Assembly (NCBI RefSeq): GCF_900103425.1
Contig: NZ_FMXA01000010.1
Span: forward strand, 1-64,000
Source: Dialister histaminiformans
GTDB lineage: Bacteria; Bacillota; Negativicutes; Veillonellales; Dialisteraceae
Direction: 5' to 3'
DNA length: 64,000 bases
Part shown: piece after piece, positions 1-45,674 of the stretch
Layout of the letters: each line of letters begins with the position of its first letter
How positions within the stretch are numbered: position 1 is the first letter of the stretch
Notes under the pieces: generated by a model
Told to the model about the DNA's origin: nothing
The model's database searches: none
Seen by the model: only the letters and a program-made list of their open reading frames with translations
Translations under genes and position numbers: made by a program

Positions 1-219
1 TTTCTTCCTATCTCCATGCGGAAATTGGAAGGTATTCGGTATTAGCAGTCGTTTCCGTCTGTTGTCCCCATCCTGAAGGCAGGTTGTTTACGTGTTACTC
101 ACCCGTTTGCCACTAGAATCCAAAAAAGAGCAAGCTCTTTCTTTTCTTCCCGTTCGACTTGCATGTGTTAAGCACGCCGCCAGCGTTCGTCCTGAGCCAG
201 GATCAAACTCTCCATGATA
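1..219 (-). rRNA. rrs: 16S ribosomal RNA, 5' end (partial)
   Basis: The complement of this stretch is the start of a bacterial 16S rRNA. The universal 27F primer site lies at 192-211 in reverse complement, followed by the conserved helices leading to the GTGAGTAACACG region. The variable V1 arm (about 125-160) contains an AAGAGCTTGCTCTT hairpin. The gene continues beyond the left edge, so only about 219 nt of the 5' end is present. The exact mature 5' end is inferred from the primer site and may be off by a few bases. Confidence 0.97.
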
Positions 220-5859: not shown

Positions 5860-6755
5860 GCGTTAGCCTGCCCCTTTCTTCCAATCAATCGAATGGCCAC
5901 AATAAACAGGAATGACATTATAAACAGGAAAAGTGCCATTGACCAGAGCGCCGCATTCAATTCCCCGCCATCCATAGCGCCGCCCATATCTGAAGCAATC
6001 GCTGCGGTAAGGCAATGTGCCGGTGCCAGAAGAGATGTGGGGAATGCCTTCATCTTACCGATAACCATAGCGACAGCCAGCGCTTCACCGAAAGCTCTGG
6101 ACAGACCAAGAATAATCGCGGTCAGAATCCCTCTTTTAGCCGCAGGAATCAGCACGCTGTAGATTACCTGCCATCGGGTAGCTCCCAGGCCATAAGCGCC
6201 TTCTAGGAACTTTGGATTTACACTTTCGATGGCATCGGCAGATATGGAGGTAATTGTCGGGTAAATCATGACTGACAACACAACGGATGCTGCCAGAATG
6301 GATTGCCCCTGGGGTAAATGGAAAAGTTCCTGAATCCATGGCACCAGTACAACCAGTCCTACCCAGCCATATACTACGGATGGAATCCCGGCAAAAATTT
6401 CAACCGCCGGGCGAATAACCTTACGCCCCAGTTCCGGCGAAATCTTTGTTATAAAGATAGCTGTGGCTACACTGAACGGAACGGCAATCAGCAAAGCCAC
6501 CATACTGGTAATAATCGATCCGGCAATAAACAATGCCGCACCTACCTTTCCACCGCCTGCCATATCATCAGCCGGTTTCCAGGTCATTCCAAACAGGAAT
6601 TCGCTTAATGAGTGACCAAACGTTACAAAAGTTTCTGAACCTCGAACCAGTAAAAATACAGAAATGGCTAAAGTGAGAATTACAATAGCCATTCCGCATA
6701 GTGATACCAGTCCTCTACCAGTGAATTCCCTTCTCCACTTAATATTGCGACTCAT
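5856..6755 (-). CDS. pstC: Phosphate ABC transporter permease PstC
   Basis: This 299-residue inner-membrane permease is the partner of PstA. Hydrophobic helices begin at about residue 17, and the EAA loop is seen in FLEGAYGLGATRWQ. An AAGGAG site lies upstream of the ATG. It is the second gene of the pst operon, 35 bp downstream of pstS. Confidence 0.94.
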   Translation of the reverse strand: MSRNIKWRREFTGRGLVSLCGMAIVILTLAISVFLLVRGSETFVTFGHSLSEFLFGMTWKPADDMAGGGKVGAALFIAGSIITSMVALLIAVPFSVATAIFITKISPELGRKVIRPAVEIFAGIPSVVYGWVGLVVLVPWIQELFHLPQGQSILAASVVLSVMIYPTITSISADAIESVNPKFLEGAYGLGATRWQVIYSVLIPAAKRGILTAIILGLSRAFGEALAVAMVIGKMKAFPTSLLAPAHCLTAAIASDMGGAMDGGELNAALWSMALFLFIMSFLFIVAIRLIGRKGQANA

Positions 6756-6790
6756 ATCTGCTCCTTATTGCATTTTCGGGATTTTGTTAC

Positions 6791-7666
6791 TTATTCCCGG
6801 GTAACCTTCATCTTGCTGGCTACACCATATCCCTGCTTTTCAATATCTGCGCTGTAATCTTTGCTCATGATGAAATCAATGAAAGCCTTAACTGCGCCGG
6901 TAGCTTCCCCCTTGGTATACATATGTTCATAGCCCCATACCGGATACTTACCGTTATATACATTCTCCAGTGTTGGTTCTACACCATCAATAGCCAGAGG
7001 AGTAACGGTGTTGTTATTCATCAGATAGGAAAGAGCTACATAACCAATAGCGCCCTTAGTCTGAGAAACAGTCTGTACCAGTGTACCGCTATCATCGGTT
7101 TCCATAGACTTATTGGACAATTCTTCCTTGCCATCCAGTGCATACTTGGTGAACAGTGCACGGGTACCGGATGTGCTTGGACGGGTAATCAGAACTACGG
7201 CTTCATCCGGGCCGCCTACATCCTTCCAGTTAGTAACCTTGCCGGTAAATATATCCTGGAGCTGTGCCTTGGTCAGGGACTTCACATTGGTGCCGATTTC
7301 CTTGCTGACTACCGGTGCCATAACGGTAACTGCTACCTTATGATCTACCAGTTCAGCAGCCTTAGCTTCCGGAAGCTTTTCCTTGGCAAATACATCGGAG
7401 TTGCCGATGTCTACAGAGCCTTCAGAAACCTGCTTAAGACCTGTGCCAGAGCCACCGGCATTAAGTGTAATAGACACCTGATCATTCTTTGCCTTAAACT
7501 TCTGTGCTGCATCCTTAGCCAGCGGAAGCAGTGCGGAAGATCCGGATACGGTTACCTTACCGGAAGGACCGGATTCTCCTGCATCATTTCCACCACAGCC
7601 GGTAAGTGCAAGCCCTGCTGCAAAAACAGAAATCAATAATGCTGCTGCCCATTTTTTCTTGTTCAT
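6791..7666 (-). CDS. pstS: Phosphate-binding lipoprotein PstS
   Basis: This 291-residue solute-binding protein begins with a lipoprotein signal peptide; the lipobox LTGC puts the acylated cysteine near residue 24. The mature protein has the phosphate-binding signatures SGSSALLPLA, the Gly-rich GGSGTG loop, and RPSTSGTRALF. It captures phosphate outside the inner membrane for PstCAB. It is the first gene of the operon, with PhoB-box-like repeats about 85-130 bp upstream. The lower conservation around the mouth is normal for the family. Confidence 0.95.
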   Translation of the reverse strand: MNKKKWAAALLISVFAAGLALTGCGGNDAGESGPSGKVTVSGSSALLPLAKDAAQKFKAKNDQVSITLNAGGSGTGLKQVSEGSVDIGNSDVFAKEKLPEAKAAELVDHKVAVTVMAPVVSKEIGTNVKSLTKAQLQDIFTGKVTNWKDVGGPDEAVVLITRPSTSGTRALFTKYALDGKEELSNKSMETDDSGTLVQTVSQTKGAIGYVALSYLMNNNTVTPLAIDGVEPTLENVYNGKYPVWGYEHMYTKGEATGAVKAFIDFIMSKDYSADIEKQGYGVASKMKVTRE

Positions 7667-7751
7667 AACTATCCTCCTGAATACATTTCTGAACCTGTAT
7701 TCAATATAAAGAACACAGGTAAATTTAATACCGGTTCCTTTGTCTTGTCTC

Positions 7752-7796
7752 TGTTAAAGACTGTAAATTTTGCGTAAAATACCCGAAGATTGTAAA
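7752..7796. promoter_or_regulatory. Candidate PhoB box: direct repeats between pstS and lipase
   Basis: On the plus strand TGTTAA (7752), TGTAAA (7762) and CGTAAA (7773) recur at 10-11-bp spacing, as in PhoB/PhoP operators made of 7-bp repeats with 4-bp gaps. Further TGTAAA copies lie at 7791 and 7817. The array sits in the shared 200-bp region between pstS (minus) and the secreted lipase (plus). A TATAAT at 7830-7835 could serve the lipase. Regulation by PhoB is inferred from the neighbours. Confidence 0.5.
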
Positions 7797-7866
7797 CATT
7801 ATCCGGTTCCCAAGCCTGTAAATCTGCGTTATAATTAATAGTACACTATGTAAAGGAGGAGTCTGT

Positions 7867-9138
7867 ATGCGATGGATGAAAAAAGCCGCCGTTGCTGTCA
7901 TGGCCATGTTTGTCTTCCTCCCTGTCTATGCGGAGTCTTCCCTATCCCCCAAAGATGCCTATGAGACTGCGAGAAAAGATTATCTCTGCGCCTGGATGTC
8001 CATGGCGGCCTACGATGACCCTATAAGTGAGCTGGGAAGAAATATGCTTGTGCATGAACATTGGAAACTGAGCAAAGCTTCTGTATCCGATGAACTGGGG
8101 CATGCCCGCTTTCTCATCGCCATGTCCGGCGACAAGGAGGAAAGGCCGCTGCTGATACTTTCTGTAGCCGGCACTACGGACTACACCGATGTAAAGGCCG
8201 ATCTCAGTTTTGACAAAACGCTGTGGGATTCATCGGCCGCTGCGCCTGACAAGACCCAAAATCTGCCAAAAGTTCACCGGGGATTTAAGCGATATGCTGA
8301 CTCCATCTGGAATACTCAGTTGGATACCATGACAGTAAGCCAGATATTAAATAGACAGGCCAGTGAAGGAGATATCCTGCTTACCGGACACAGTCTGGGC
8401 GGCGCTGTATCCACCCTCATGGGGGTAAAGATGATCGATTCCGGTCTTAACCAGCACCTGGAAGTGGTTACATTTGGCGCTCCTGCAGTAGGCAATCCGG
8501 CCTTCGTGGATACCTATGAATCCCTGCTGCCGCTGAAACGGATTGTCAATTCCGGTGATCCTGTGCAAAGCGTAGTTCAGAAGGTGGTAAAAAACTACAC
8601 GCAGATAGGCAGTGAGGAACGCTGGAAACCGGTAGAAGGCTCCCATTATTTCAGCCACCGCATGATGGTGTATCTGGACACGGCCATACGTAATTATTAT
8701 GATGCCCGGGATGCCTATGAAAAATCAGGCGGTCATATTCCGGAAAATATACCTGCCTCTCCCCCTTCCTTCTTTATCCTTCCTCTGCAGGTCACCACGG
8801 ATGATGCATTGGCTTCTGATATCCCCTATATGAAAAAAATTACTGCAGATTATTATCAAAAGCAGCTCCCCGGTGCCATTATGGGTACAGAAGGCAAAAC
8901 TACCGAAGAGGCTCTCTCCCTTGCCCGGCAGAATGGCTGCCGGTATACTCTGGAAAATGAACTGACTGCCAGAACCATACCAAGCAAAAATAACGAAATT
9001 CAGATTACTTTTATGCAGACACTGCGCACTGTAGATGGACATGTGATTTCTTACAGTGAATACAGAATGCCCGCCCGGGATATGACTCCGATAGAAGCCG
9101 CCTTATATGTGGCCGCTAAGGTTAAACCTTCTATCTGA
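7867..9138 (+). CDS. Secreted class 3 lipase
   Basis: This 423-residue protein has an N-terminal signal peptide (about 1-22) and an alpha/beta-hydrolase core of the Lipase_3 (fungal lipase-like) family. The nucleophile elbow GHSLGG places the catalytic Ser at 176. Asp231 (NSGDPVQ) and His260 or His264 (GSHYFSH) are candidates for the rest of the triad. After about residue 290 comes a second domain of about 130 residues that I do not recognise. It probably hydrolyses acyl esters of lipids in the periplasm or outside the cell. AAAGGAGG precedes the ATG. It is divergent from pstS and shares its regulatory region, so a role in releasing phosphorus- or lipid-derived nutrients under phosphate limitation is plausible but inferred. 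Confidence 0.85.
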   Translation: MRWMKKAAVAVMAMFVFLPVYAESSLSPKDAYETARKDYLCAWMSMAAYDDPISELGRNMLVHEHWKLSKASVSDELGHARFLIAMSGDKEERPLLILSVAGTTDYTDVKADLSFDKTLWDSSAAAPDKTQNLPKVHRGFKRYADSIWNTQLDTMTVSQILNRQASEGDILLTGHSLGGAVSTLMGVKMIDSGLNQHLEVVTFGAPAVGNPAFVDTYESLLPLKRIVNSGDPVQSVVQKVVKNYTQIGSEERWKPVEGSHYFSHRMMVYLDTAIRNYYDARDAYEKSGGHIPENIPASPPSFFILPLQVTTDDALASDIPYMKKITADYYQKQLPGAIMGTEGKTTEEALSLARQNGCRYTLENELTARTIPSKNNEIQITFMQTLRTVDGHVISYSEYRMPARDMTPIEAALYVAAKVKPSI

Positions 9139-26421: not shown

Positions 26422-27753
26422 TTATGCATTAACACTTGCTGCATCACCGGAAACATGACGGTCATCATTTTCCAGCACATCCTTCAGATCATGATTGGTC
26501 ATAGCGCATACAGCGGAGTCAGACCATACATTTTCTGCGGTTTCAATCATATCAATGATGGTGTAGATGGGAAGGATTACGCCCATGAGTCCCAGCGGAG
26601 CGCCGATGGAAGACATGAGAGACAGTGTCAGGAAATAGCATCCCATCGGAACACCGGCATTACCAATAGCGGAAATTACGGCAATGACTACCCATACCAG
26701 CATAGTGCCAATGGACAGATGGAAACCTGCGTTCTGCATAAGGAACAGGGATGTGGTAAGAATGAAGGCAGCGCATCCGTTCATATTAATAGTCGTGCAG
26801 ATTGGCAGTACGAAACGGGATACAGAATGGTTGACCTTCATATTTTCTTCCGCAGAAGCCAGAGTTACCGGAAGTGTACCAGCGGAACTCTTAGTGAACA
26901 GGGCAACGGCCAGAGCCGGAGACATCTGTCTGAACACCTTAATCGGGTTGAGGCCTCTTGCCAGAAGGAAGAGCGGAATAGTAATGAAAATCTGAATAAA
27001 GTTACCGCCAAGTACAACGGCTACATACTTACCAAGAGCACCGATGATGACACCAGCCTGAATCTGAGAAGAAAGCTGAGCCGCATAAGCCATAATGCCT
27101 ACTGGAAGTGCCCAGAGCAATGCACGGATGAGTGCAAACAGCACTTCCTGCAGTCCATAGATCCCCTTAAGCAGGACTTCCCGGTTTTCTGTCTTCTTCA
27201 TAAAGGCCAGAGCCAGACCTGTGGCAGCGGAAATAATCAGTACGGAAAGTACATTGCCGCTGAGGAATGGAGCCAGAATATTATTTGGAATGACAGAAAG
27301 GAAATGGTCGTAATAAGTCATCTGTTCCAGATCCTGCGGAACAGCGCTGGCACCGGCGCCGATAACGCTGGCCGGCAGATTACCCGGGGCAATCCAGATA
27401 TACAGACCCATAGCGATTAATGCGGCAGCAAATGTGGTGAGAAGGGTATAGGTTACGGCATGGCCGAAAATCTTACCTGTATTCTTCTGCGCTCCCAGGG
27501 CCGCCAGTGTGGTAATGACCGCCAGAGAAATGGTCGGAACGGCGATGAACTGGAACAGACGGGTATATACCTGAGCGATAAAGTTAAAAAGTTCATTAAG
27601 CGCGCTGTTGCCCATCCAGCCAAGTCCGGCACCAATGGCCAGGGCCAGAATCCAGATGACGAGCTGACGCTTGTTATGTCCCGCCTGGCCGGCCTTTAAT
27701 GCGGCATCTGCCTTTTCTCTGACAGTGCTCTGCTGATTGTTATTTACATCCAT
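26422..27753 (-). CDS. Dicarboxylate/amino acid:cation symporter (DAACS family)
   Basis: This 443-residue inner-membrane protein belongs to the SDF/DAACS family (glutamate, aspartate, dicarboxylate, serine/threonine or cystine carriers). The first reentrant hairpin has SSAGTLPVTL, helix 7 has the cation-site NMNGCAAF, and the second hairpin has AIGNAGVPMG; these differ from the NMDGT and GIPG versions of classical GltP/DctA. The N terminus (about 1-28) is a hydrophilic extension. It sits behind a T-box-like leader, which argues that the substrate is an amino acid. The exact amino acid cannot be read with confidence. Confidence 0.88.
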   Translation of the reverse strand: MDVNNNQQSTVREKADAALKAGQAGHNKRQLVIWILALAIGAGLGWMGNSALNELFNFIAQVYTRLFQFIAVPTISLAVITTLAALGAQKNTGKIFGHAVTYTLLTTFAAALIAMGLYIWIAPGNLPASVIGAGASAVPQDLEQMTYYDHFLSVIPNNILAPFLSGNVLSVLIISAATGLALAFMKKTENREVLLKGIYGLQEVLFALIRALLWALPVGIMAYAAQLSSQIQAGVIIGALGKYVAVVLGGNFIQIFITIPLFLLARGLNPIKVFRQMSPALAVALFTKSSAGTLPVTLASAEENMKVNHSVSRFVLPICTTINMNGCAAFILTTSLFLMQNAGFHLSIGTMLVWVVIAVISAIGNAGVPMGCYFLTLSLMSSIGAPLGLMGVILPIYTIIDMIETAENVWSDSAVCAMTNHDLKDVLENDDRHVSGDAASVNA

Positions 27754-27876: not shown

Positions 27877-28137
27877 CAAAACAAAAGGCTTCCGTCCCTA
27901 AGGGACGAAAGCCTGGCTTCGTGATTCTCACCCAAATTTACAGATATGTCACCATATCTGCCTCTACCGGTACGTGTTCATACCGTAAACGCTTTATCGG
28001 GCGTACCCGGAACAGCCTACTCACATTTCAGCTTTCAAGCTCCAGAATGCACTTCAGTCCCATATCCGTACCCGCTCTCACTATCCGGGCTCGCTTTACC
28101 GTATTAGAAGACTTACTCTTTCTTTCATTGCTTTATG
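27877..28137 (-). promoter_or_regulatory. T-box-like leader RNA controlling the DAACS symporter
   Basis: The minus-strand transcript starts with an AGAGTAAG segment, a distal hairpin (28071-28089) with GTGAGAG in the loop, an AGTAGGC segment, a CGGG-CGTA-CCCG hairpin (27998-28009) and a perfect stem-III hairpin (27941-27960). These match T-box Stem I-III architecture. An ACGAAGCC/GGCTTTCGT antiterminator then competes with a terminator (27886-27914) followed by TTTTGTTTTG. The expected GGGTGGNACC bulge reads GGGTGAGAATC here. T-box leaders read uncharged tRNA. The candidate specifier near GAAAGCTGAA could be AGC (Ser) or GCT (Ala), but this is not secure. Confidence 0.72.
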
Positions 28138-35273: not shown

Positions 35274-35936
35274 TTACTGTGCTTTAGATGCGCGTTTTTT
35301 CCAGATATAGCCCCATACCCCTACCAGGATGGCTCCGCCGATTTCCAGCGGCAGTTTCCAGGATGTGGACAGTGCCAGTGTGGCATCGGATACCACCAGA
35401 CCACCGGAAGACCAGCCGATAAGCATACCTGCCAGATAAACAACGATAGGAAATCTATCCATAATCTTCACAATGATAGTGGATCCAAAAAGAATAATCG
35501 GCACAGAGAAAAGCATACCGAAGACCACCATGCCCAGATGTCCATTAGTTGCCCCTACAATAGCCAGAACATTATCCAAACTCATAATGGCATCCGCTGC
35601 AATAATGGTAACAATGGCCCCCATCAGCGTATTCTTACTCTTAATGTCCGGTGTCTCTTCATCTTCCTGCTCTCCAATCAACTTTGCCCCGATATAGAAC
35701 AGAATCAGTGCTCCCACCACTTTCAGATAAGGAATCTGCATAAGTTCCACGGCAATAGCCGCCAGAATAAAACGACAGCCTACCGCCCCCATGGCCCCAA
35801 AAAAGATGGCCTTTTTCCGGAGATGGACATCCAGATTTTTAGCCGCCATAGCGATAACGGCCGCATTGTCTCCCCCTAATGCCAGATCAAGAAATACAAC
35901 AGAAAGTACATTGGAAACCAACTGCCAGAGTGTCAT
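35274..35936 (-). CDS. TerC-family integral membrane protein (YjbE-like), copy 1
   Basis: This 220-residue protein has about seven hydrophobic helices. The family hallmarks are Asp/Asn-rich membrane motifs: LDLALGGDNAAVIAMA in helix 1 and ADAIMSLDNVLAIVGA in the middle. An acidic loop (GEQEDEETPD, about 88-97) is cytoplasmic or periplasmic. TerC/YjbE relatives are implicated in metal (often Mn2+) export and metalation of exported enzymes. The next gene upstream is a clear paralogue, separated by a terminator. No Mn riboswitch of the yybP-ykoY type was found in the 190-bp leader; a GGAGAAC/GTTCTCC hairpin (about 35956-35976) lies near the start. Confidence 0.85.
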   Translation of the reverse strand: MTLWQLVSNVLSVVFLDLALGGDNAAVIAMAAKNLDVHLRKKAIFFGAMGAVGCRFILAAIAVELMQIPYLKVVGALILFYIGAKLIGEQEDEETPDIKSKNTLMGAIVTIIAADAIMSLDNVLAIVGATNGHLGMVVFGMLFSVPIILFGSTIIVKIMDRFPIVVYLAGMLIGWSSGGLVVSDATLALSTSWKLPLEIGGAILVGVWGYIWKKRASKAQ

Positions 35937-36127: not shown

Positions 36128-36829
36128 TTACTTGTCAAATTCAACTGACTGATTTACCGGTACTGCAGCCGGCCGGCGCATTCTCCTACGCACATAGCCA
36201 GCAGCAAGAATCAGGAATGTCAGCGCCACTTCCAGAGGAAGTTTGAAACCATCCGCCAGTCCCAGGGATGCGTCGGTGGCAATCATGCCGCCAGCCGCCC
36301 AGCCGATAACCATTGCCGCCACATAGATGGCAACCGGAAAGCGATCCATCAGCTTAAGAACCAGTGTACTTCCGAATACAATAATCGGAACAGAAATAAC
36401 CATGCCGAAGGCAAGCATTCCCAGATGTCCGTCTGTAGCACCTACAATAGCCAGTACATTATCAAGGCTCATAATCACATCGGCCAGGATAATGGTTCGA
36501 ATAGCGCCGCCCAGTGTCTGGCTGCTCTTAATTTCTTTTTCGCCATCGTCCTCGCCCGCTATAAGTCCCATACCGATCCAGAGAAGAATGACGGCCCCCA
36601 CCGTCTTCAGGAAAGGAATCTGCATGAGATACGTGGCAACTACTGCTAAAACAAAACGCGCAATCACTGCACCAGCTGTACCTATAAGAATCGCCTTTTT
36701 ACGAAGTTTGTGATTCAGGTTCTTAGCCGCCATACCGATAACTGCGGAATTATCTGCACCCAGTGCAAGATCCAGCAAAATTACCTGTGCAATCATGATT
36801 GCGTAGCCCAATCCATTTGAAAGGTCCAA
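36128..36829 (-). CDS. TerC-family integral membrane protein (YjbE-like), copy 2
   Basis: This 233-residue paralogue of the downstream gene shares LDLALGADNSAVIGMAAKNL and LADVIMSLDNVLAIVGATDGHLGM, with the same helix layout and a similar acidic loop (GEDDGEKE). The C-terminal tail is longer and basic (RRRMRRP). The start codon is TTG at 36829 with AAGGAG upstream; there is no nearby ATG in frame. Tandem duplication followed by separate terminators suggests independent control. Substrate is probably a divalent metal, by family. Confidence 0.85.
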   Translation of the reverse strand: MDLSNGLGYAIMIAQVILLDLALGADNSAVIGMAAKNLNHKLRKKAILIGTAGAVIARFVLAVVATYLMQIPFLKTVGAVILLWIGMGLIAGEDDGEKEIKSSQTLGGAIRTIILADVIMSLDNVLAIVGATDGHLGMLAFGMVISVPIIVFGSTLVLKLMDRFPVAIYVAAMVIGWAAGGMIATDASLGLADGFKLPLEVALTFLILAAGYVRRRMRRPAAVPVNQSVEFDK

Positions 36830-37041: not shown

Positions 37042-38346
37042 TTACTTCTCGAACGACGGAGCAAGGAAACCATACAGTGTAAGTCCAAAAAAGAATACCA
37101 GGGCGGCTGCCATCATAGCATCGGCGCCGGCAGCATAACAGGCATACAGGGTGTACAGCGAACCCACAAAGGATGCAATCATAGGCAGACGGAGCTCCTC
37201 CCTGCTTCCATGACCAGCCTTTATCATAATCAGCTCCATAGCTGCCATGCAGAAAAAATAAGGCACTATATTGGTGATGACAGCCAGATTGGCCAGCACT
37301 TCAAACTGTTCATTCAGAGATGGACTGATAGTCATCAGCGAAAGACCGGTCTGAATCAATCCGGCAATCACCATACCAGCCACCGGTGCCTCATACCGGT
37401 TTACTGACGCAAAAACGGAAGGGTAGAATCCTTTCAGTGCTGCCGCACGATACATATTGCCTCCAGTAAACTGCCACCCAAGAAGAGACCCAAGACAGGC
37501 AATACACATCAGCGCCATAACCACTTTTCCTGCCAGTGGCCCGAACATATATGCAAAGGCCAGCCCGAAAGGCGCATTGCTCTCTGCTACTTGCGATGCT
37601 GGAAGCAGGCCAAAAATCACATTGGTAGAAAGAATATATATCACGGCGCTGCCCAGAGTACCCCCCAGTACAGCAATGGGCACATTGCGTTCTGGGTTTT
37701 CTACCGCATCCGCATTGACGCAGGCCGACTCCAGTCCCAGAAAAGCCCAGAGGGTCATGACCACAGACTGCAGAATGCCCTGGCTGAACGGAAGATTCTG
37801 TACATTCCAGTTCGCCACAAACAGAGCAGGAGAAAAGAAGAACCATCCAGCAGTAGCAATTATAAATACAGGGACCAGTACCCCAAGAATGGTAATTCCG
37901 CCAATCCGTCCGGTAATGTCAGCCCCTCTGAAATTAGGTACTGTCGTAAGCCAGATAACGCCTATGGTATAAAGACAGGTGGGGACCGCTCCCAGGGAAA
38001 TACCCAGGCAGGTCGCGCCATACCCTACCGCAGACAGAGCAATGGCCACGTTGGATACCAAAATGGATACTGTATAGACATAGCAGCACAGGAAATTACC
38101 TGCCGTGCCAAAAGCATATTCGGCATACCCGCTCATACCACCTGCTTTTCTGCTGTACATTCCGCATTTGGCAAATGCGTAAGCCAGACAGGTAGAACAA
38201 AAGGTGGTTATGATCCATGAAAGAATGGATATACCTCCCACCTGAGCCAGACTGGCCGGAAGGAGAATGATTCCTGCACCAATCATATTGACTGCCGTAA
38301 GAAGCATAAGTTCCCAGACACTCATTTTTGAATTCGTATCGCTCAT
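37042..38346 (-). CDS. APC-superfamily amino acid/polyamine antiporter (PotE/CadB-like)
   Basis: This 434-residue permease has about twelve membrane helices. The first helix region MIGAGIILLPASLAQVGG and the later LESACVNADAVENPERNVPIA are typical of the basic amino acid/polyamine antiporter group (PotE, CadB, AdiC). No decarboxylase gene is adjacent, so the substrate is unknown. I chose the ATG at 38346 with GAGGTG upstream; an earlier in-frame start would add 39 hydrophilic residues. The gene is monocistronic, ending 500 bp before the ATP synthase terminator's far side. Confidence 0.85.
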   Translation of the reverse strand: MSDTNSKMSVWELMLLTAVNMIGAGIILLPASLAQVGGISILSWIITTFCSTCLAYAFAKCGMYSRKAGGMSGYAEYAFGTAGNFLCCYVYTVSILVSNVAIALSAVGYGATCLGISLGAVPTCLYTIGVIWLTTVPNFRGADITGRIGGITILGVLVPVFIIATAGWFFFSPALFVANWNVQNLPFSQGILQSVVMTLWAFLGLESACVNADAVENPERNVPIAVLGGTLGSAVIYILSTNVIFGLLPASQVAESNAPFGLAFAYMFGPLAGKVVMALMCIACLGSLLGWQFTGGNMYRAAALKGFYPSVFASVNRYEAPVAGMVIAGLIQTGLSLMTISPSLNEQFEVLANLAVITNIVPYFFCMAAMELIMIKAGHGSREELRLPMIASFVGSLYTLYACYAAGADAMMAAALVFFFGLTLYGFLAPSFEK

Positions 38347-38501
38347 TTTGCACCTCAGGAAAAGGAATCTTACATCCGCTTTTCCGAATATGTCGCTATA
38401 TGGCTTATCTTGCCCATTATGTATACATACCAACCAATCGGGAAAACGGTAAATATATAACAAAAGATGTAACCTTTATACAATATATCAGATTTTCAGC
38501 G

Positions 38502-38555: not shown

Positions 38556-38975
38556 TTACAGTGACTTAGTTACTCTCAGACGAAGGAGTGCACGGTTCAA
38601 AGCCAGCTGCGCACGGTCGGTATCAATATCCGCAGATTTTGATGCCAGACGTTCTTCAGCACGCTTTTTTGCGGCCTGAGCACGAGCTACATCGATGTCT
38701 TCAGCCATTTCAACCTGTGGTGACACAATATTCACACGGTCATCGTTGATTTCAAGAAAACCATTAAATACTGCAATCTGCTTTTCCTTGCCGTCCTTTT
38801 TAACACGGACCGGAGCAATGGTAAGAGCAGCTACCAGAGGAAGGTGGCCTTTCATAACAGCAAATTCACCATCAATTGCACGGGCAACAACCATTTCCAC
38901 GCCGTCAGCTGTATATACAGCGCCGTCAGGGCTCATGATTTCCACATGCATTGGAGATGTCAGGGTGTCAGCCAT
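38556..38975 (-). CDS. atpC: ATP synthase epsilon subunit
   Basis: This 139-residue central-stalk subunit has an N-terminal beta-sandwich (MHVEIMSPDGAVYTADGVEMV) and a two-helix C-terminal part with RAQAAKKRAEERLA, which in this family can inhibit ATP hydrolysis. It is the last gene of the operon, 3 bp after atpD. Confidence 0.95.
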   Translation of the reverse strand: MADTLTSPMHVEIMSPDGAVYTADGVEMVVARAIDGEFAVMKGHLPLVAALTIAPVRVKKDGKEKQIAVFNGFLEINDDRVNIVSPQVEMAEDIDVARAQAAKKRAEERLASKSADIDTDRAQLALNRALLRLRVTKSL

Positions 38976-38978
38976 AGC

Positions 38979-41332
<2,354 letters not shown>

Positions 41333-41337
41333 TCAGA

Positions 41338-42870
41338 TCACCCCTGTACGTTTTCAGACTTTGCTGCCTTGTAGCGAGCCTTGAATTCTTCAATAGCCGC
41401 ACGCAGCTGTGCATCGATATCATCGGTCAGCTTCTTCTTTTCCAGAATAGCCTTGCCGATTTCCGGATGGGAATTACGCAGGAAAGCAATAAGCTGATCT
41501 TCGAAAGGTACAACTTCTTCTACTGCGATGTCATCCAGGTAGCCCTTAACGGCGGTGAAGATGGCTTCAATCTGTTCTTCAACCGGGAATGGGCTGTACT
41601 GTGGCTGCTTCAGAACTTCGGTCGTTCTTTCACCACGGTCAATCTGTGCCTTGGTTGCTGGATCGAGATCGGAACCAAACTGAGCAAATGCTGCCAGTTC
41701 GCGATACTGAGCCAGTTCCAGACGCAGCGTACCTGCTACCTGCTTCATGGCCTTGATCTGTGCGGAACCGCCTACACGGGATACGGACAGACCAACGTTG
41801 ATTGCCGGACGAATACCGGAATAGAACAGGTTGGTTTCCAGATAAATCTGACCGTCGGTAATGGAAATTACGTTGGTTGGAATATATGCACCTACGTCGC
41901 CTGCCAGGGTTTCGATGATTGGCAGTGCGGTGATGGAACCGCCGCCGAGTTCGTCAGAGAGACGGGCAGCACGTTCCAGCAGACGGGAGTGCAGATAGAA
42001 TACGTCGCCCGGGTAAGCTTCACGTCCCGGTGGGCGGCGGAGCAGCAGGGACATTGCACGGTATGCTACCGCATGCTTGGACAGATCATCATAAATGATG
42101 AGGACGTCCTTGCCCTGATGCATGAAGTATTCCGCAATGGATACACCAGAGTATGGTGCCAGATACTGCATTGGGGAACCTTCAGAAGCGCCGGCATGAA
42201 CGATGATGGAATAATCCATAGCGCCTGCCTGCTTCAGTCTTTCATATACGCGGACTACGTTAGAGTTCTTCTGTCCGATGGAGACATAAATACAGATAAC
42301 GTTTAAGCCCTTCTGGTTCAAAATGGTATCGATGGCAATAGCTGTCTTACCGGTACCACGGTCACCGATGATTAATTCACGCTGACCACGTCCGATTGGA
42401 ACCATTGCGTCGATAGCCTTAAGACCTGTCTGCAGCGGAACATTAACTGGCTGTCTGTCAGCAATGCCCGGTGCCTTAATTTCAATGTCGCGATAGGTAT
42501 CAGTCTTGATATCGCCCTTGCCGTCAATCGGCTGACCAAGGGAGTTAACAACACGGCCCAGAACTGCGTCGCCTACAGGAACCTGCATCAAGCGGCCTGT
42601 TCTCTTAACTGTGTCGCCTTCCTTAATTGTTTCTGCCTGACCAAGAAGAACTGCACCTACGTTGCTTTCTTCCAGGTTAAGCGCCATACCATAGACTCCG
42701 TGTGGCAATTCAAGCAATTCACCGGCCATGCAGTTTTCAAGGCCATAAATGTGAGCAATGCCATCGCCGACTTCGAGTACTGTACCTACTTCATCGACAT
42801 TGAGGTCTACTTTGTAGTTTTCAATCTGTTTCTTAATGACAGATGTGATTTCATCTGAACTGATCTTCAT
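41338..42870 (-). CDS. atpA: ATP synthase alpha subunit
   Basis: This 510-residue non-catalytic nucleotide-binding subunit has the P-loop [18 protein letters not shown], the segment [26 protein letters not shown] in parts, and the VGGSAQ motif with the catalytic arginine finger region. It lies 15 bp after atpH. Confidence 0.98.
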
Positions 42871-42885
42871 ATCCTATAAGTCACC

Positions 42886-43431
42886 TCAACCTCTTTGCAT
42901 CATTTTCGCTTTCAGCGTGCTAAGCTGACGGGCTACAGAACCATCGATAAGACGGTCCCCTACCTTTACGGTAAAGCCACCGAGCAGCGCTGAATCCACT
43001 TCCTGCCGCATGATAATCTTCTTCCCGGTAATTTCTTCCAGCTTTGCACGGAGTGCATCGGCCTGTTTACCGGTAAGAGGAGCCGCACTGGTAACCAGAG
43101 CTTCCTCCACACCCAGCCCTTCATGGGCAAGGGATGTGTAGACATCAATCATGGATTCAAGGATAGATGCTCTATCCTTGTCGATTACGACGTAGCAGAA
43201 CTGCAGCACAATCGGCTGTACCTTATCTGCGAATATTTTCTTAATTGTATCTTTCTTAATTTCCTTGGACAGGAGCGGATGGCTCAGCAGCTTTTTAAGG
43301 TCTGCATTTTCACTGATTGCAGAAGCGATCAGTTTGAGATCCTTTTCCGTCTGTTCCAGGGTATGCTGTTCTACAGCAATTTCATAGATAGCTCGTCCAT
43401 ACTTTTTTGCAAGGATTACGGTCTTATCCAT
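42886..43431 (-). CDS. atpH: ATP synthase delta subunit
   Basis: This 181-residue peripheral-stalk subunit joins F1 to the b subunits. The opening AKKYGRAIYEIAVEQ and the C-terminal motif VGDRLIDGSVARQLSTLK are typical. It is separated from atpF by 2 bp. Confidence 0.95.
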   Translation of the reverse strand: MDKTVILAKKYGRAIYEIAVEQHTLEQTEKDLKLIASAISENADLKKLLSHPLLSKEIKKDTIKKIFADKVQPIVLQFCYVVIDKDRASILESMIDVYTSLAHEGLGVEEALVTSAAPLTGKQADALRAKLEEITGKKIIMRQEVDSALLGGFTVKVGDRLIDGSVARQLSTLKAKMMQRG

Positions 43432-43433
43432 GA

Positions 43434-43928
43434 TTATTTACCTGCTTTTTGAGCATCCAGCTTAGCGATGCTCTCATTGATTAACCGGTCATTGATGTCC
43501 GGTGTCATATTGGTGCTGATAATCTTCGCTGCGATATCACAGGAAATAGCGGCGAACTGGGACTTAAGATCATCAAGAGCATCCTTGCGTTCTCTCTCGA
43601 TTTGCTTAGTAGCAGCTTCCTTTTCCTTTTCAATAGCTTCATGCGCAGCCTGAATCTGGGCCTGAGCCTGTACTTCAGCTTCCTTTACCGCTTTGCTGAC
43701 AATTTCATTAGCCTTAACCTGTGCTTCGCTCAGCTGAGCTTCATAGGATTCCTTCAGCTTAGCTGCATCATCACGGGATTTAGCGGCAGAATCCAGGTCA
43801 TTCTTAATGCGGTTTGCACGTTCATCAAGAATCTTGATAATCGGCTTGTAGCAGTAATGACCGAGAATAGCGCAAAGAATAATAAAGTTGAGGATCTGAA
43901 TCAGCAGTGTACCATTAAGTTCTACCAA
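43434..43928 (-). CDS. atpF: ATP synthase b subunit
   Basis: This 164-residue stator subunit has one N-terminal membrane helix (about 6-27) and a long charged coiled coil rich in Ala, Lys and Glu (about 35-130). It holds the F1 head against rotation. It lies about 40 bp after atpE. Confidence 0.95.
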   Translation of the reverse strand: MVELNGTLLIQILNFIILCAILGHYCYKPIIKILDERANRIKNDLDSAAKSRDDAAKLKESYEAQLSEAQVKANEIVSKAVKEAEVQAQAQIQAAHEAIEKEKEAATKQIERERKDALDDLKSQFAAISCDIAAKIISTNMTPDINDRLINESIAKLDAQKAGK

Positions 43929-43968: not shown

Positions 43969-44220
43969 TTAGCCGAGGAATGGGTTAGCGAATACCAGTA
44001 CAATTGCGATAACGATAGCGATAATCGGAATAGATTCGACCATACCGATACCAACCAGCATGTTGGTGAACAGCTGGCCTGCCATTTCTGGCTGACGGGT
44101 GGTGCCATCGATAGCTGCCTTAGCTACCTTGGAGTCGTTGAATGCTGCTGCGATGGAAGCGATTGCTGCGATGATAGCAGATGCAATGAGAGAGTACTGA
44201 ATAACGATTGTCTGATCCAT
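43969..44220 (-). CDS. atpE: ATP synthase c subunit
   Basis: This 83-residue rotor-ring subunit forms a helical hairpin with the usual RQPE loop (42-45). The ion-binding acid in helix 2 is Glu62 (VESIPII), followed by Ser63. Helix 1 lacks the usual GxGxGxG repeat; it reads AAAFNDSKVAKAA instead. Anchoring on the RQP loop, Asp29 falls where Na+-type rings have Gln32. A pair of carboxylates is therefore likely at the ion site, as reported for the Fusobacterium nucleatum Na+ ring (Glu32/Glu65). Ion specificity is inferred only. An AGGAGGAATTT site precedes the ATG. Confidence 0.96.
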   Translation of the reverse strand: MDQTIVIQYSLIASAIIAAIASIAAAFNDSKVAKAAIDGTTRQPEMAGQLFTNMLVGIGMVESIPIIAIVIAIVLVFANPFLG

Positions 44221-44272: not shown

Positions 44273-44325
44273 GATTCCGTTTGGTGGGACGGTGCCCAGT
44301 GATTCCGTTTGAATGGACGGTGCCA
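44273..44325. repeat. Near-identical direct repeats between atpB and atpE
   Basis: GATTCCGTTTG followed by GGACGGTGCC occurs at 44273-44298 and again at 44301-44325 with small differences; a partial third GGACGG follows at 44335. A CCGGT/ACCGG hairpin lies next to it (44258-44271). The 138-bp gap is unusually long inside this operon. Confidence 0.75.
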
Positions 44326-44358: not shown

Positions 44359-45021
44359 TTATACGCTTTCCTTCATGTATACAGAAACGAGCGTAGTAAA
44401 GATATAGGCCTGGATTACACCAACGAATAAGCTGAACGCAATCCATACGATAGGTACCAGCCACGGTGCCAAATTGTTAAGAACTTCCAGCAGAATTTCG
44501 CCGGCCAGAATATTACCAAATAGACGCATTGCCAAAGTAATTGGCTTGCTGATTTCTTCGATAAGATTCAGGAATACAAATGGGGCGATTGGTTGAAAGA
44601 AGTGTTTAATCCAATGACCGAAGCCCTTGTTCTTAATGTAGTAGAAATGAATAAGCAGGGATGAAGCTATCGCGAGTCCCAATGTCGTATTCAAATCATT
44701 AGTCGGAGATGCTGTCAGATGTTCTGTCGGCAGAAGACCGATCTGGTTGGCTGTCAGGATAAACATGAACAGTGTAAGCAGAACGGTAGATACCTTGCGG
44801 TAATTCTTACCCACATTCGCACGGAACTGGCCGAATAAAAATTCAAATACCATTTCCACCACATTCTGAACTCCCGATGGAACCATTGCACGGCCCCGGG
44901 TTGCAGCGAACACGATTAAGAAAACTATAAGAGCACTAAGCCATGTAGTAAAAATCGTATCCCAGTTTACAGACATTCCAAACAACATTGAAACAACGTG
45001 TGTACCTGTGTGAAGATGCAT
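44359..45021 (-). CDS. atpB: ATP synthase a subunit
   Basis: This 220-residue membrane stator contains the essential Arg in ISKPITLAMRLFGNILAGE, and the C-terminal helices IPIVWIAFSLFVGVIQAYIFTTL. Together with the c ring it forms the ion half-channels. The gene follows the atpI-like gene by about 40 bp, with a GGGGGTGAG-type site upstream. Confidence 0.95.
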   Translation of the reverse strand: MHLHTGTHVVSMLFGMSVNWDTIFTTWLSALIVFLIVFAATRGRAMVPSGVQNVVEMVFEFLFGQFRANVGKNYRKVSTVLLTLFMFILTANQIGLLPTEHLTASPTNDLNTTLGLAIASSLLIHFYYIKNKGFGHWIKHFFQPIAPFVFLNLIEEISKPITLAMRLFGNILAGEILLEVLNNLAPWLVPIVWIAFSLFVGVIQAYIFTTLVSVYMKESV

Positions 45022-45063: not shown

Positions 45064-45444
45064 CTATTCCTTAATTAATTTGACTACTCTGTCCACAAGG
45101 GTCATAAGCGTCAAAGTAAGTAAGCCAACGAGATATCCAAAAATGTTAAGCGGCGTAAATACCACAGCTACACAGGTAAGGATTTGCAGCACCAGACGGC
45201 ACATGGCAAACAGAGACAGTCTCTGGCTGATGAAAACCGGGTCCTTCTCCTGCCTTTCCCACTGCTGTTCTTTAGCCAAAAGAAAAGAGAGAAAAAGAAT
45301 CTGAAATAATCCGCCTGCCACTACTCCAGCGCCTACCTGCCAGTTCCAGTACATAGTACCGGCCATGGCAAATATCCCTGCTGCAATGGCAGTCTGTCTG
45401 ATCATACGTCTGGCAAATCTGGCAAATGTCTGATCATATTTCAT
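45064..45444 (-). CDS. atpI: ATP synthase subunit I-like protein
   Basis: This 126-residue protein has four hydrophobic helices, typical of ATP synthase protein I, which helps c-ring assembly. Its place between atpZ and atpB supports the call. The ATG at 45444 has GGAGAG upstream, contained in the last codons of the preceding gene. Confidence 0.8.
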   Translation of the reverse strand: MKYDQTFARFARRMIRQTAIAAGIFAMAGTMYWNWQVGAGVVAGGLFQILFLSFLLAKEQQWERQEKDPVFISQRLSLFAMCRLVLQILTCVAVVFTPLNIFGYLVGLLTLTLMTLVDRVVKLIKE

Positions 45445-45449
45445 GAAAC

Positions 45450-45674
45450 TTATCTCTCCAACATTTTTCGAATTACTGACCAAAGTCCTGCTGCACCACC
45501 CATAACTGACATAATCATCAGTCCATAAGGGGAACAGCCTGCATACTCATCAATCTTGAGCCCACAATACACACCTACGCCTATACAGGTCAGTAGTGTC
45601 ATCCCTGCTCCGGATGCTACCGCAATCCGATGAAGAGGATTAAAATCGTCGGGCTTCTTTTCCGTCCCTTTCAT
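45450..45674 (-). CDS. atpZ: AtpZ-like ATP synthase accessory protein
   Basis: This 74-residue protein has two membrane helices (about 17-38 and 48-67) and a short hydrophilic start, as in the AtpZ/AtpI group of F-ATPase assembly factors found at the head of atp operons. It begins the operon. A palindromic ACACGT/ACGTGT pair (45715-45732) lies in the 92-bp upstream region and might mark an operator. Confidence 0.75.
   Translation of the reverse strand: MKGTEKKPDDFNPLHRIAVASGAGMTLLTCIGVGVYCGLKIDEYAGCSPYGLMIMSVMGGAAGLWSVIRKMLER

What the first reader, a model, noticed from the sequence alone, without database searches (positions are those of the whole stretch)
43969..44220. ATP synthase c subunit with a possible two-carboxylate ion site
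Using the RQPE loop as an anchor, Asp29 in helix 1 falls at the Gln32 position of Na+-type c rings, while helix 2 has Glu62-Ser63 (Glu65-Ser66). The helix-1 GxGxGxG repeat is replaced by an alanine-rich segment with Asn28, Asp29, Ser30 and Lys31. A two-carboxylate Na+ site is known for Fusobacterium nucleatum (Glu32/Glu65). An Asp at this place would be a related but different version, and it bears on whether this organism uses Na+ or H+.
Basis: partly seen in the sequence, partly recalled or inferred. Interest (0 to 1): 0.62.

Follow-up and report, generated by a model that had tools for sequence, protein, structure and literature searches.

The report
Proton-type two-carboxylate ATP synthase rotor subunit
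The rotor protein of this bacterium's ATP synthase does carry two acidic residues at its ion site, but that is a normal trait of its whole bacterial class, resembles the proton-driven rotor of tuberculosis bacteria, and comes without the other residues or the known sodium pumps that a sodium-driven machine would need.

Summary
In detail: window 43969-44220 (-) encodes an 83-aa F-type c subunit with Asp29 at the Gln32/Glu32 position, Glu62-Ser63 at Glu65-Ser66, and the Gly motif replaced by S22/A24/A26/N28. The Na+ reading is not supported. The Thr67 and Tyr70 positions of Na+ rings are Ile64 and Ile67. In 117 Negativicutes c subunits the residue is Asp (94) or Asn (21), interchanged at least 11 times on a tree, never with Thr/Ser at E+2 or Tyr at E+5. 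In 162 distinct c subunits Asp/Asn gave 0/135 with that Tyr and Glu/Gln 11/11. The same Asp/Glu pair exists in Mycobacterium, whose H+-coupled c rings are also the best fold matches. The genome (99% complete) has one rotary c gene, no Na+ decarboxylase beta subunit, no Rnf/Nqr and no complex I-type pump, but three ornithine decarboxylases and at least seven PotE-type antiporters, one just downstream of the atp operon. Best reading: an H+-coupled 'mix'-type ring with a constitutively protonated Asp29, working on a proton gradient that ornithine/putrescine exchange could supply. New member of a known kind; the class-wide pattern makes H+ versus Na+ use in Negativicutes testable.

The parts
43969..44220 (-). 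atpE, F-type ATP synthase subunit c, 83 aa
   Evidence: TIGR01260 over cut-off; PF00137 over cut-off; only PF00137 match in the genome
44134..44136 (-). codon of Asp29, helix-1 carboxylate at the Gln32/Glu32 position (R-13)
   Evidence: sequence; alignment to 3zk1; class survey
44032..44037 (-). codons of Glu62-Ser63, main ion-binding Glu and the Ser66-equivalent
44020..44031 (-). codons of Ile64, Pro65, Ile66, Ile67: positions of Thr67, Gly68, Ile69 and Tyr70 of Na+ rings; Thr and Tyr absent
44137..44157 (-). codons 22-28, the former GxGxGxG stretch, now S22-I-A24-A-A26-F-N28
44359..45021 (-). atpB, subunit a
   Evidence: PF00119 185.6 bits, TIGR01131 over cut-off
43434..43928 (-). atpF, subunit b
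   Evidence: TIGR01144 over cut-off
42886..43431 (-). atpH, subunit delta
   Evidence: TIGR01145 over cut-off
41338..42870 (-). atpA, subunit alpha
   Evidence: TIGR00962 over cut-off
40445..41332 (-). atpG, subunit gamma
   Evidence: TIGR01146 over cut-off
38979..40412 (-). atpD, subunit beta
   Evidence: TIGR01039 over cut-off
38556..38975 (-). atpC, subunit epsilon (by position and reading; not scanned against families)
   Evidence: ORF; homologues directly after beta in 8 relatives
45450..45674 (-). AtpZ/ATPase_gene1-type accessory protein at the head of the operon
   Evidence: PF09527 47.0 bits
45064..45483 (-). small protein between atpZ and atpB, AtpI-like by position only
   Evidence: ORF; no family match
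37042..38463 (-). PotE-type putrescine-ornithine antiporter directly downstream of the atp operon, same strand
   Evidence: NF007938 616.4 bits (cut-off 409), TIGR04299 575.9 (cut-off 560); in genus mate G193 also downstream of the operon, 68% identical

Best explanation
This is an H+-coupled F-type ATP synthase c subunit of the 'mix' kind (a proton rotor that keeps some polar residues of the Na+ motif). Glu62 takes up and releases the transported proton. Asp29 stays protonated and acts as a hydrogen-bond partner of Glu62, which is why it is interchangeable with Asn in sister lineages. Ser63 may add a hydroxyl to that network. Without the Thr67 and Tyr70 equivalents the site lacks the water ligand and the lock of a Na+ site. 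In this organism, which lacks the known primary Na+ pumps that were searched for, the ring would run on a proton gradient, plausibly supplied by ornithine decarboxylation with electrogenic PotE ornithine/putrescine exchange, or run backwards to make one. Shown: sequence, conservation, gene content, fold match. Inferred: protonation state, H+ coupling, the role of PotE, and that loss of the Gly motif may give a ring larger than c11.
For: Thr/Ser never at E+2 and Tyr never at E+5 in 117 Negativicutes c subunits; Asp/Asn 0/135 with Tyr against Glu/Gln 11/11 in 162 distinct sequences, Fisher p 9e-17, not corrected for relatedness. At least 11 Asp/Asn switches on a subunit a+b tree, 8 independent pairs on well-supported branches. 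Same D/E spacing in the M. tuberculosis ring (8j0s), H+-driven per PMC3692424, and Asn in Bacillus PS3. AlphaFold hairpin pLDDT 89.9; best Foldseek matches are mycobacterial c rings, TM 0.78-0.83, against 0.61 for the Na+ rings 3zk1 and 1yce. No OAD_beta, Rnf/Nqr or Proton_antipo_M in the 99.25% complete genome; the genus mate also lacks OAD_beta and Rnf/Nqr. Three ornithine decarboxylases and at least seven PotE-family antiporters. Published rule: the Na+ type needs the full ligand set, including a polar residue at position 67 (PMC2359735); two-carboxylate H+ rings are expected to hold one permanent proton (PMC3692424).
Against: Ser63 is kept, as in Na+ rings, and many class members with the same motif do have Na+ pumps (72 of 80 genomes have OAD_beta or Rnf/Nqr). 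No Negativicutes c ring structure or ion assay was found. Na+ pumps other than those searched (for example a Na+ pyrophosphatase) were not tested. No ring coordinates were available, so the D29-E62 distance was not measured.
Confidence: 0.84

Rival explanations
1. Na+-coupled two-carboxylate ring, an Asp version of the F. nucleatum Glu32/Glu65 site, with a protonated Asp29 and Na+ held by D29, E62, S63 and a backbone carbonyl.
For: D29, E62 and S63 sit at the right positions; Na+ pumps are common elsewhere in the class.
Against: T67 and Y70 equivalents are Ile, P65 replaces G68; no sampled class member has them; Asp never occurs with that Tyr; this genome and its genus mate lack the Na+ pumps searched for; the D/S motif shows no link with pumps (42/49 against 30/31, p 0.14, opposite direction).
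Confidence: 0.06
2. Promiscuous ring: H+ under most conditions, Na+ as well when Na+ is in large excess, as proposed for Methanosarcina acetivorans.
For: Ser63 plus two carboxylates keep part of a Na+ site; PMC3692424 explains M. acetivorans that way.
Against: The N-type ring of B. pseudomallei with two Glu, Thr and Tyr, predicted Na+-selective, proved predominantly H+-selective (PMC5376962); this site has fewer Na+ ligands.
Confidence: 0.07
3. Asp29 is not part of the ion site but a surface or inter-helix polar residue that happens to align there.
For: Helix 1 around it is polar (N28, D29, S30, K31), and no ring model was built here.
Against: Ungapped spacing to both the loop and Glu62, Asp/Asn restriction over the class, and Asp32 is described next to the site in mycobacteria.
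Confidence: 0.03

Closest known systems
Mycobacterial c ring (M. tuberculosis Asp28/Glu61; M. phlei Asp32/Glu65, PDB 4v1f, 8j0s)
   Same: Asp at R-13 and Glu at R+20, no Thr/Tyr of the Na+ motif; best fold match of the predicted hairpin; H+-coupled per PMC3692424
   Different: Ala instead of Ser after the Glu; GAGIGDG Gly motif intact; AYFI instead of IPII after it
Bacillus PS3 c ring (PDB 1wu0, 6n2d)
   Same: Asn at R-13 followed by E-x-x-P-I-I; the same short-side-chain class
   Different: Asn instead of Asp, Ala instead of Ser, Gly motif kept
Fusobacterium nucleatum Na+ c11 ring (PDB 3zk1)
   Same: Two carboxylates at the same two positions, Ser after the Glu
   Different: Glu instead of Asp; Thr67, Gly68 and Tyr70 are Ile, Pro, Ile here; GxGxGxG lost here; F. 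nucleatum pumps Na+ by a glutaconyl-CoA decarboxylase (PMC3692424), no OAD_beta here
Bacillus pseudofirmus OF4 c13 ring (PDB 2x2v, 4cbj)
   Same: Top sequence match in the PDB; Ala in the Gly-motif positions, E-x-V-P-I-I; its Val21, which counts to R-13, is a position where V21N slows growth at pH 10.5 (PMC4453477)
   Different: Only two of four motif positions are Ala here; no Pro at E-3; no carboxylate in helix 1 there
[quoted passage not shown]
   Same: Two carboxylates, predicted Na+ from sequence but measured predominantly H+-selective (PMC5376962)
   Different: Glu pair with Thr and Tyr; N-type operon

Membership tests
F-type ATP synthase subunit c | TIGR01260 / PF00137 match, RQP loop, Glu in helix 2, within an atp operon | tested here: met
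Two-carboxylate c ring | Carboxylate in helix 1 at the position of the site (R-13) plus Glu/Asp in helix 2 (R+20) | tested here: met
   sequence position only; facing geometry not measured
Na+-type c ring (I. tartaricus / F. nucleatum) | Gln or Glu at position 32 | tested here: not met
   Asp29
Na+-type c ring (I. tartaricus / F. nucleatum) | Glu65-Ser/Thr66 | tested here: met
   E62-S63
Na+-type c ring (I. tartaricus / F. nucleatum) | Polar residue (Thr/Ser/Gln/Arg) at position 67 | tested here: not met
   Ile64; rule from PMC2359735
Na+-type c ring (I. tartaricus / F. nucleatum) | Tyr70 locking the Glu | tested here: not met
   Ile67; never Tyr in the class survey
Na+-type c ring (I. tartaricus / F. 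nucleatum) | GxGxGxG helix-1 motif | tested here: not met
   motif positions S/A/A/N
Na+-type c ring (I. tartaricus / F. nucleatum) | c11 stoichiometry | not testable with these tools
   needs a purified ring
Na+-type c ring (I. tartaricus / F. nucleatum) | Na+ protects the Glu from DCCD/NCD-4 | not testable with these tools
   needs a purified ring
H+-coupled 'mix' class of Preiss 2010 | Incomplete Na+ motif with a polar or charged residue at a Na+-ligand position | tested here: met
   class defined in PMC2914638
H+-coupled 'mix' class of Preiss 2010 | Proton coupling | not testable with these tools
   inferred from motif and gene content only
Mycobacterial Asp/Glu c ring | Asp at R-13 and Glu at R+20 | tested here: met
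Mycobacterial Asp/Glu c ring | Ala after the Glu and intact Gly motif | tested here: not met
   Ser63; S/A/A/N
Alkaliphile AxAxAxA / PxxExxP c subunit | Four Ala in helix 1 and Pro at E-3 | tested here: not met
   two of four Ala, Gly59 at E-3

The most novel reading that the evidence does not exclude
The Negativicutes Asp/Glu-Ser ring is a distinct ion-site variant that can take Na+ as well as H+ (Asp29, Glu62, Ser63 and a backbone carbonyl replacing the Thr/Tyr network), so that class members with Na+-pumping decarboxylases couple them directly to ATP synthesis, while the pump-less genus of this window uses the same ring with protons from ornithine/putrescine exchange.
Probability: 0.08. Interest if true: 0.65.

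Novelty: new member of a known kind. Interest (0 to 1): 0.34.

Why it matters
Many Negativicutes pump Na+ with decarboxylases, and it is natural to assume that their ATP synthases use that Na+ directly, as in Propionigenium and Fusobacterium. The class-wide Asp/Asn site without Thr and Tyr predicts they do not, so the Na+ gradient would have to be exchanged for H+ or spent on transport. That can be tested on one purified ring. In this genus the absence of the known Na+ pumps and the wealth of ornithine decarboxylase/PotE genes suggest a use for putrescine formation (making a proton gradient), for which a 2025 paper on Dialister micraerophilus says the function is unclear. Whether this genome belongs to that species was not established.

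Tried and rejected
Considered and rejected: Na+ ring by analogy with F. nucleatum (missing Thr/Tyr, missing pumps). Considered: Asp29 unique to this organism; rejected, it is the class norm. Considered: D/S motif as a marker of Na+ energetics; no association with OAD_beta or Rnf/Nqr in 80 genomes, the trend runs the other way. Considered: D29 and S63 co-evolving; raw association p 0.007 but only 0-4 informative independent pairs on the tree, not significant. Considered: the organism as a histidine fermenter; no pyruvoyl histidine decarboxylase match (but that control rang nowhere, so not conclusive).

Full report
WHAT IS THERE. Window 43969-44220 on the minus strand encodes MDQTIVIQYSLIASAIIAAIASIAAAFNDSKVAKAAIDGTTRQPEMAGQLFTNMLVGIGMVESIPIIAIVIAIVLVFANPFLG, with an AGGAGG site upstream of the ATG. 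It lies in a full operon: atpZ-like 45450-45674, a small protein 45064-45483, then a, c, b, delta, alpha, gamma, beta, epsilon. It passes the TIGR01260 and PF00137 cut-offs, and PF00137 finds no second rotary c/K subunit in the 1.7 Mb, 99.25% complete genome, so there is no V-type or N-type ATPase with a recognisable c subunit.

REGISTER. Counting from the Arg of the RQPE loop, Asp29 is R-13 and Glu62 R+20, the spacing of F. nucleatum Glu32/Glu65 (and, from general knowledge, I. tartaricus Gln32/Glu65); the alignment to 3zk1 pairs D29 with E32 and ESIPII with ESTGIY. What was left out is the rest of the site: in the F. nucleatum structure Na+ is held by Glu32, Glu65, Ser66, the Val63 carbonyl and a water bound to Thr67, and Tyr70 holds Glu65 (PMC3692424). 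Here Thr67 is Ile64, Gly68 is Pro65 and Tyr70 is Ile67.

CLASS SURVEY. P0002 matched 291 of 300 genomes of the class. From 117 of them, spread over 34 families and most genera, the c subunits were read. Named relatives (Megasphaera, Veillonella, Acidaminococcus fermentans, Selenomonas, Mitsuokella) show that the class is Negativicutes. R-13 is Asp in 94, Asn in 21, Ile in 2; E+1 is Ser in 80 and Ala in 35; E+2 is never Thr or Ser; E+5 is never Tyr (Ile 106, Leu 8, Val 2, Met 1). Asp is thus the norm of the class. On a tree of subunits a and b, Asp and Asn changed places at least 11 times, which fits a side chain that acts as a neutral hydrogen-bond partner, that is, an Asp that stays protonated. 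This matches the interpretation of Schulz et al. that the second carboxylate is constitutively protonated and is then equivalent to Gln or Asn.

TWO SEPARATE KINDS. Pooling with named non-Negativicutes and with the extra, N-type-like c subunits found in some Negativicutes genomes, 162 distinct sequences split cleanly: Asp/Asn at R-13 had Tyr at E+5 in 0 of 135, Glu/Gln in 11 of 11 (Fisher p 9e-17; relatedness not corrected for, and only 11 Glu/Gln rows). Three Negativicutes genomes (G028, G049, G016) carry both kinds side by side, so the contrast is not simply one of lineage. Asp29 belongs to the Asn (Bacillus-like) kind, not to the Glu/Gln (Na+) kind.

KNOWN PRECEDENT. The same Asp/Glu pair is in the M. 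tuberculosis ring: GAGIGDG...ARQPE...VEAA, Asp28 at R-13 and Glu61 at R+20 (PDB 8j0s); M. phlei numbering Asp32/Glu65, described beside the bedaquiline-binding ion site. Schulz et al. name M. tuberculosis and S. pneumoniae as H+-driven two-carboxylate enzymes. Bacillus PS3 has Asn at the place. The predicted hairpin (pLDDT 89.9, helices 3-42 and 44-77) matches mycobacterial c rings best (TM 0.78-0.83) and the Na+ rings 3zk1 and 1yce less well (0.61); that measures hairpin shape, not ion choice. Sequence rules from the literature put this protein on the H+ side: a complete ligand set is needed for Na+ (PMC2359735), and proton rotors with a partial Na+ motif form the 'mix' class (PMC2914638). 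A caution from experiment: the B. pseudomallei N-type ring, with two Glu, Thr and Tyr, was predicted to be Na+-selective and was found predominantly H+-selective.

GENOME CONTEXT. The genome has no OAD_beta, no Rnf/Nqr and no Proton_antipo_M (complex I, Ech, Mrp type), each with positive controls elsewhere. The genus mate G193 also lacks OAD_beta and Rnf/Nqr. In 80 class genomes 65 have OAD_beta, 28 Rnf/Nqr, and only 8 neither. Seven of these eight, this one included, still carry D/ES, so the motif is kept without Na+ pumps. What the genome does have is a PotE-type putrescine-ornithine antiporter 92 bp after the atp operon on the same strand (37042-38463, over both curated cut-offs), at least six more of that family on two other contigs, and three ornithine decarboxylases, one of them set between antiporter genes. 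Decarboxylation inside plus exchange of a singly charged amino acid for a doubly charged amine would make a proton-motive force; the principle was shown for histidine/histamine (Molenaar 1993, cited in PMC8638253). Its use here is inference. Dialister micraerophilus makes putrescine from ornithine and the authors call its function unclear (PMC12208373); this genome may belong to that group, but no named record of it was matched (warns that near records are left out).

GLY MOTIF. In the window's family 10 of 12 sampled members have no Gly at the four motif positions. In B. pseudofirmus OF4 the AxAxAxA ring is c13 and Gly replacements give c12. A ring larger than c11 is therefore a fair guess for this organism; it would lower the gradient needed per ATP. 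It was not tested.

LIMITS. No coordinates of the model were accessible, so D29-E62 geometry in a ring was not measured. H+ coupling is inferred, not shown. Na+ pumps of other families, such as Na+ pyrophosphatase, were not searched. The survey took one genome per species and mostly one per genus.

VERDICT.

Noticed in passing
window 37042-38463 (-): PotE-type putrescine-ornithine antiporter directly downstream of the atp operon; the genome holds at least seven such antiporters and three ornithine decarboxylases (G000 contigs C15 and C21; L217, L218, L219).
   Followed up: partly
L219 2124-13424 (G000:C21:50000-64000): Cluster of four or five PotE-family antiporter genes around one ornithine decarboxylase (6156-8378), an unusual local expansion.
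   Followed up: partly
L199, L200, L201 (G028, G049, G016): Second, N-type-like c subunits with Gln or Glu at R-13 and ES[ML]AIY in Negativicutes genomes that also have an Asp-type ring.
   Followed up: partly
L204, L205 (G064 contigs C24 and C25): Two extra, divergent c subunits in one Negativicutes genome, with a changed loop (GRKPE, GKKPE); three c genes in all.
   Followed up: no
L061, L121, L134 (Selenomonadaceae-type, f14 g80 and relatives): c subunits whose Gly motif is replaced by bulky residues (I/M/V, e.g. TSIIMAVYGDS), still with Asp at R-13.
   Followed up: no
window 44273-44324: 24-nt direct repeat (88% identical, 28-bp spacing) in the a-c intergenic region; no unusual RNA fold (z +0.36).
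   Followed up: yes
window 35274-35936 and 36128-36829 (-): Two neighbouring YjbE-family putative metal transport proteins.
   Followed up: no
window 27898-28137 (-): T-box leader upstream of a DctA/GltP-like dicarboxylate or amino acid symporter gene (26422-27753).
   Followed up: no
window 1-218 (-): 5' end of a 16S rRNA gene at the window edge.
   Followed up: no
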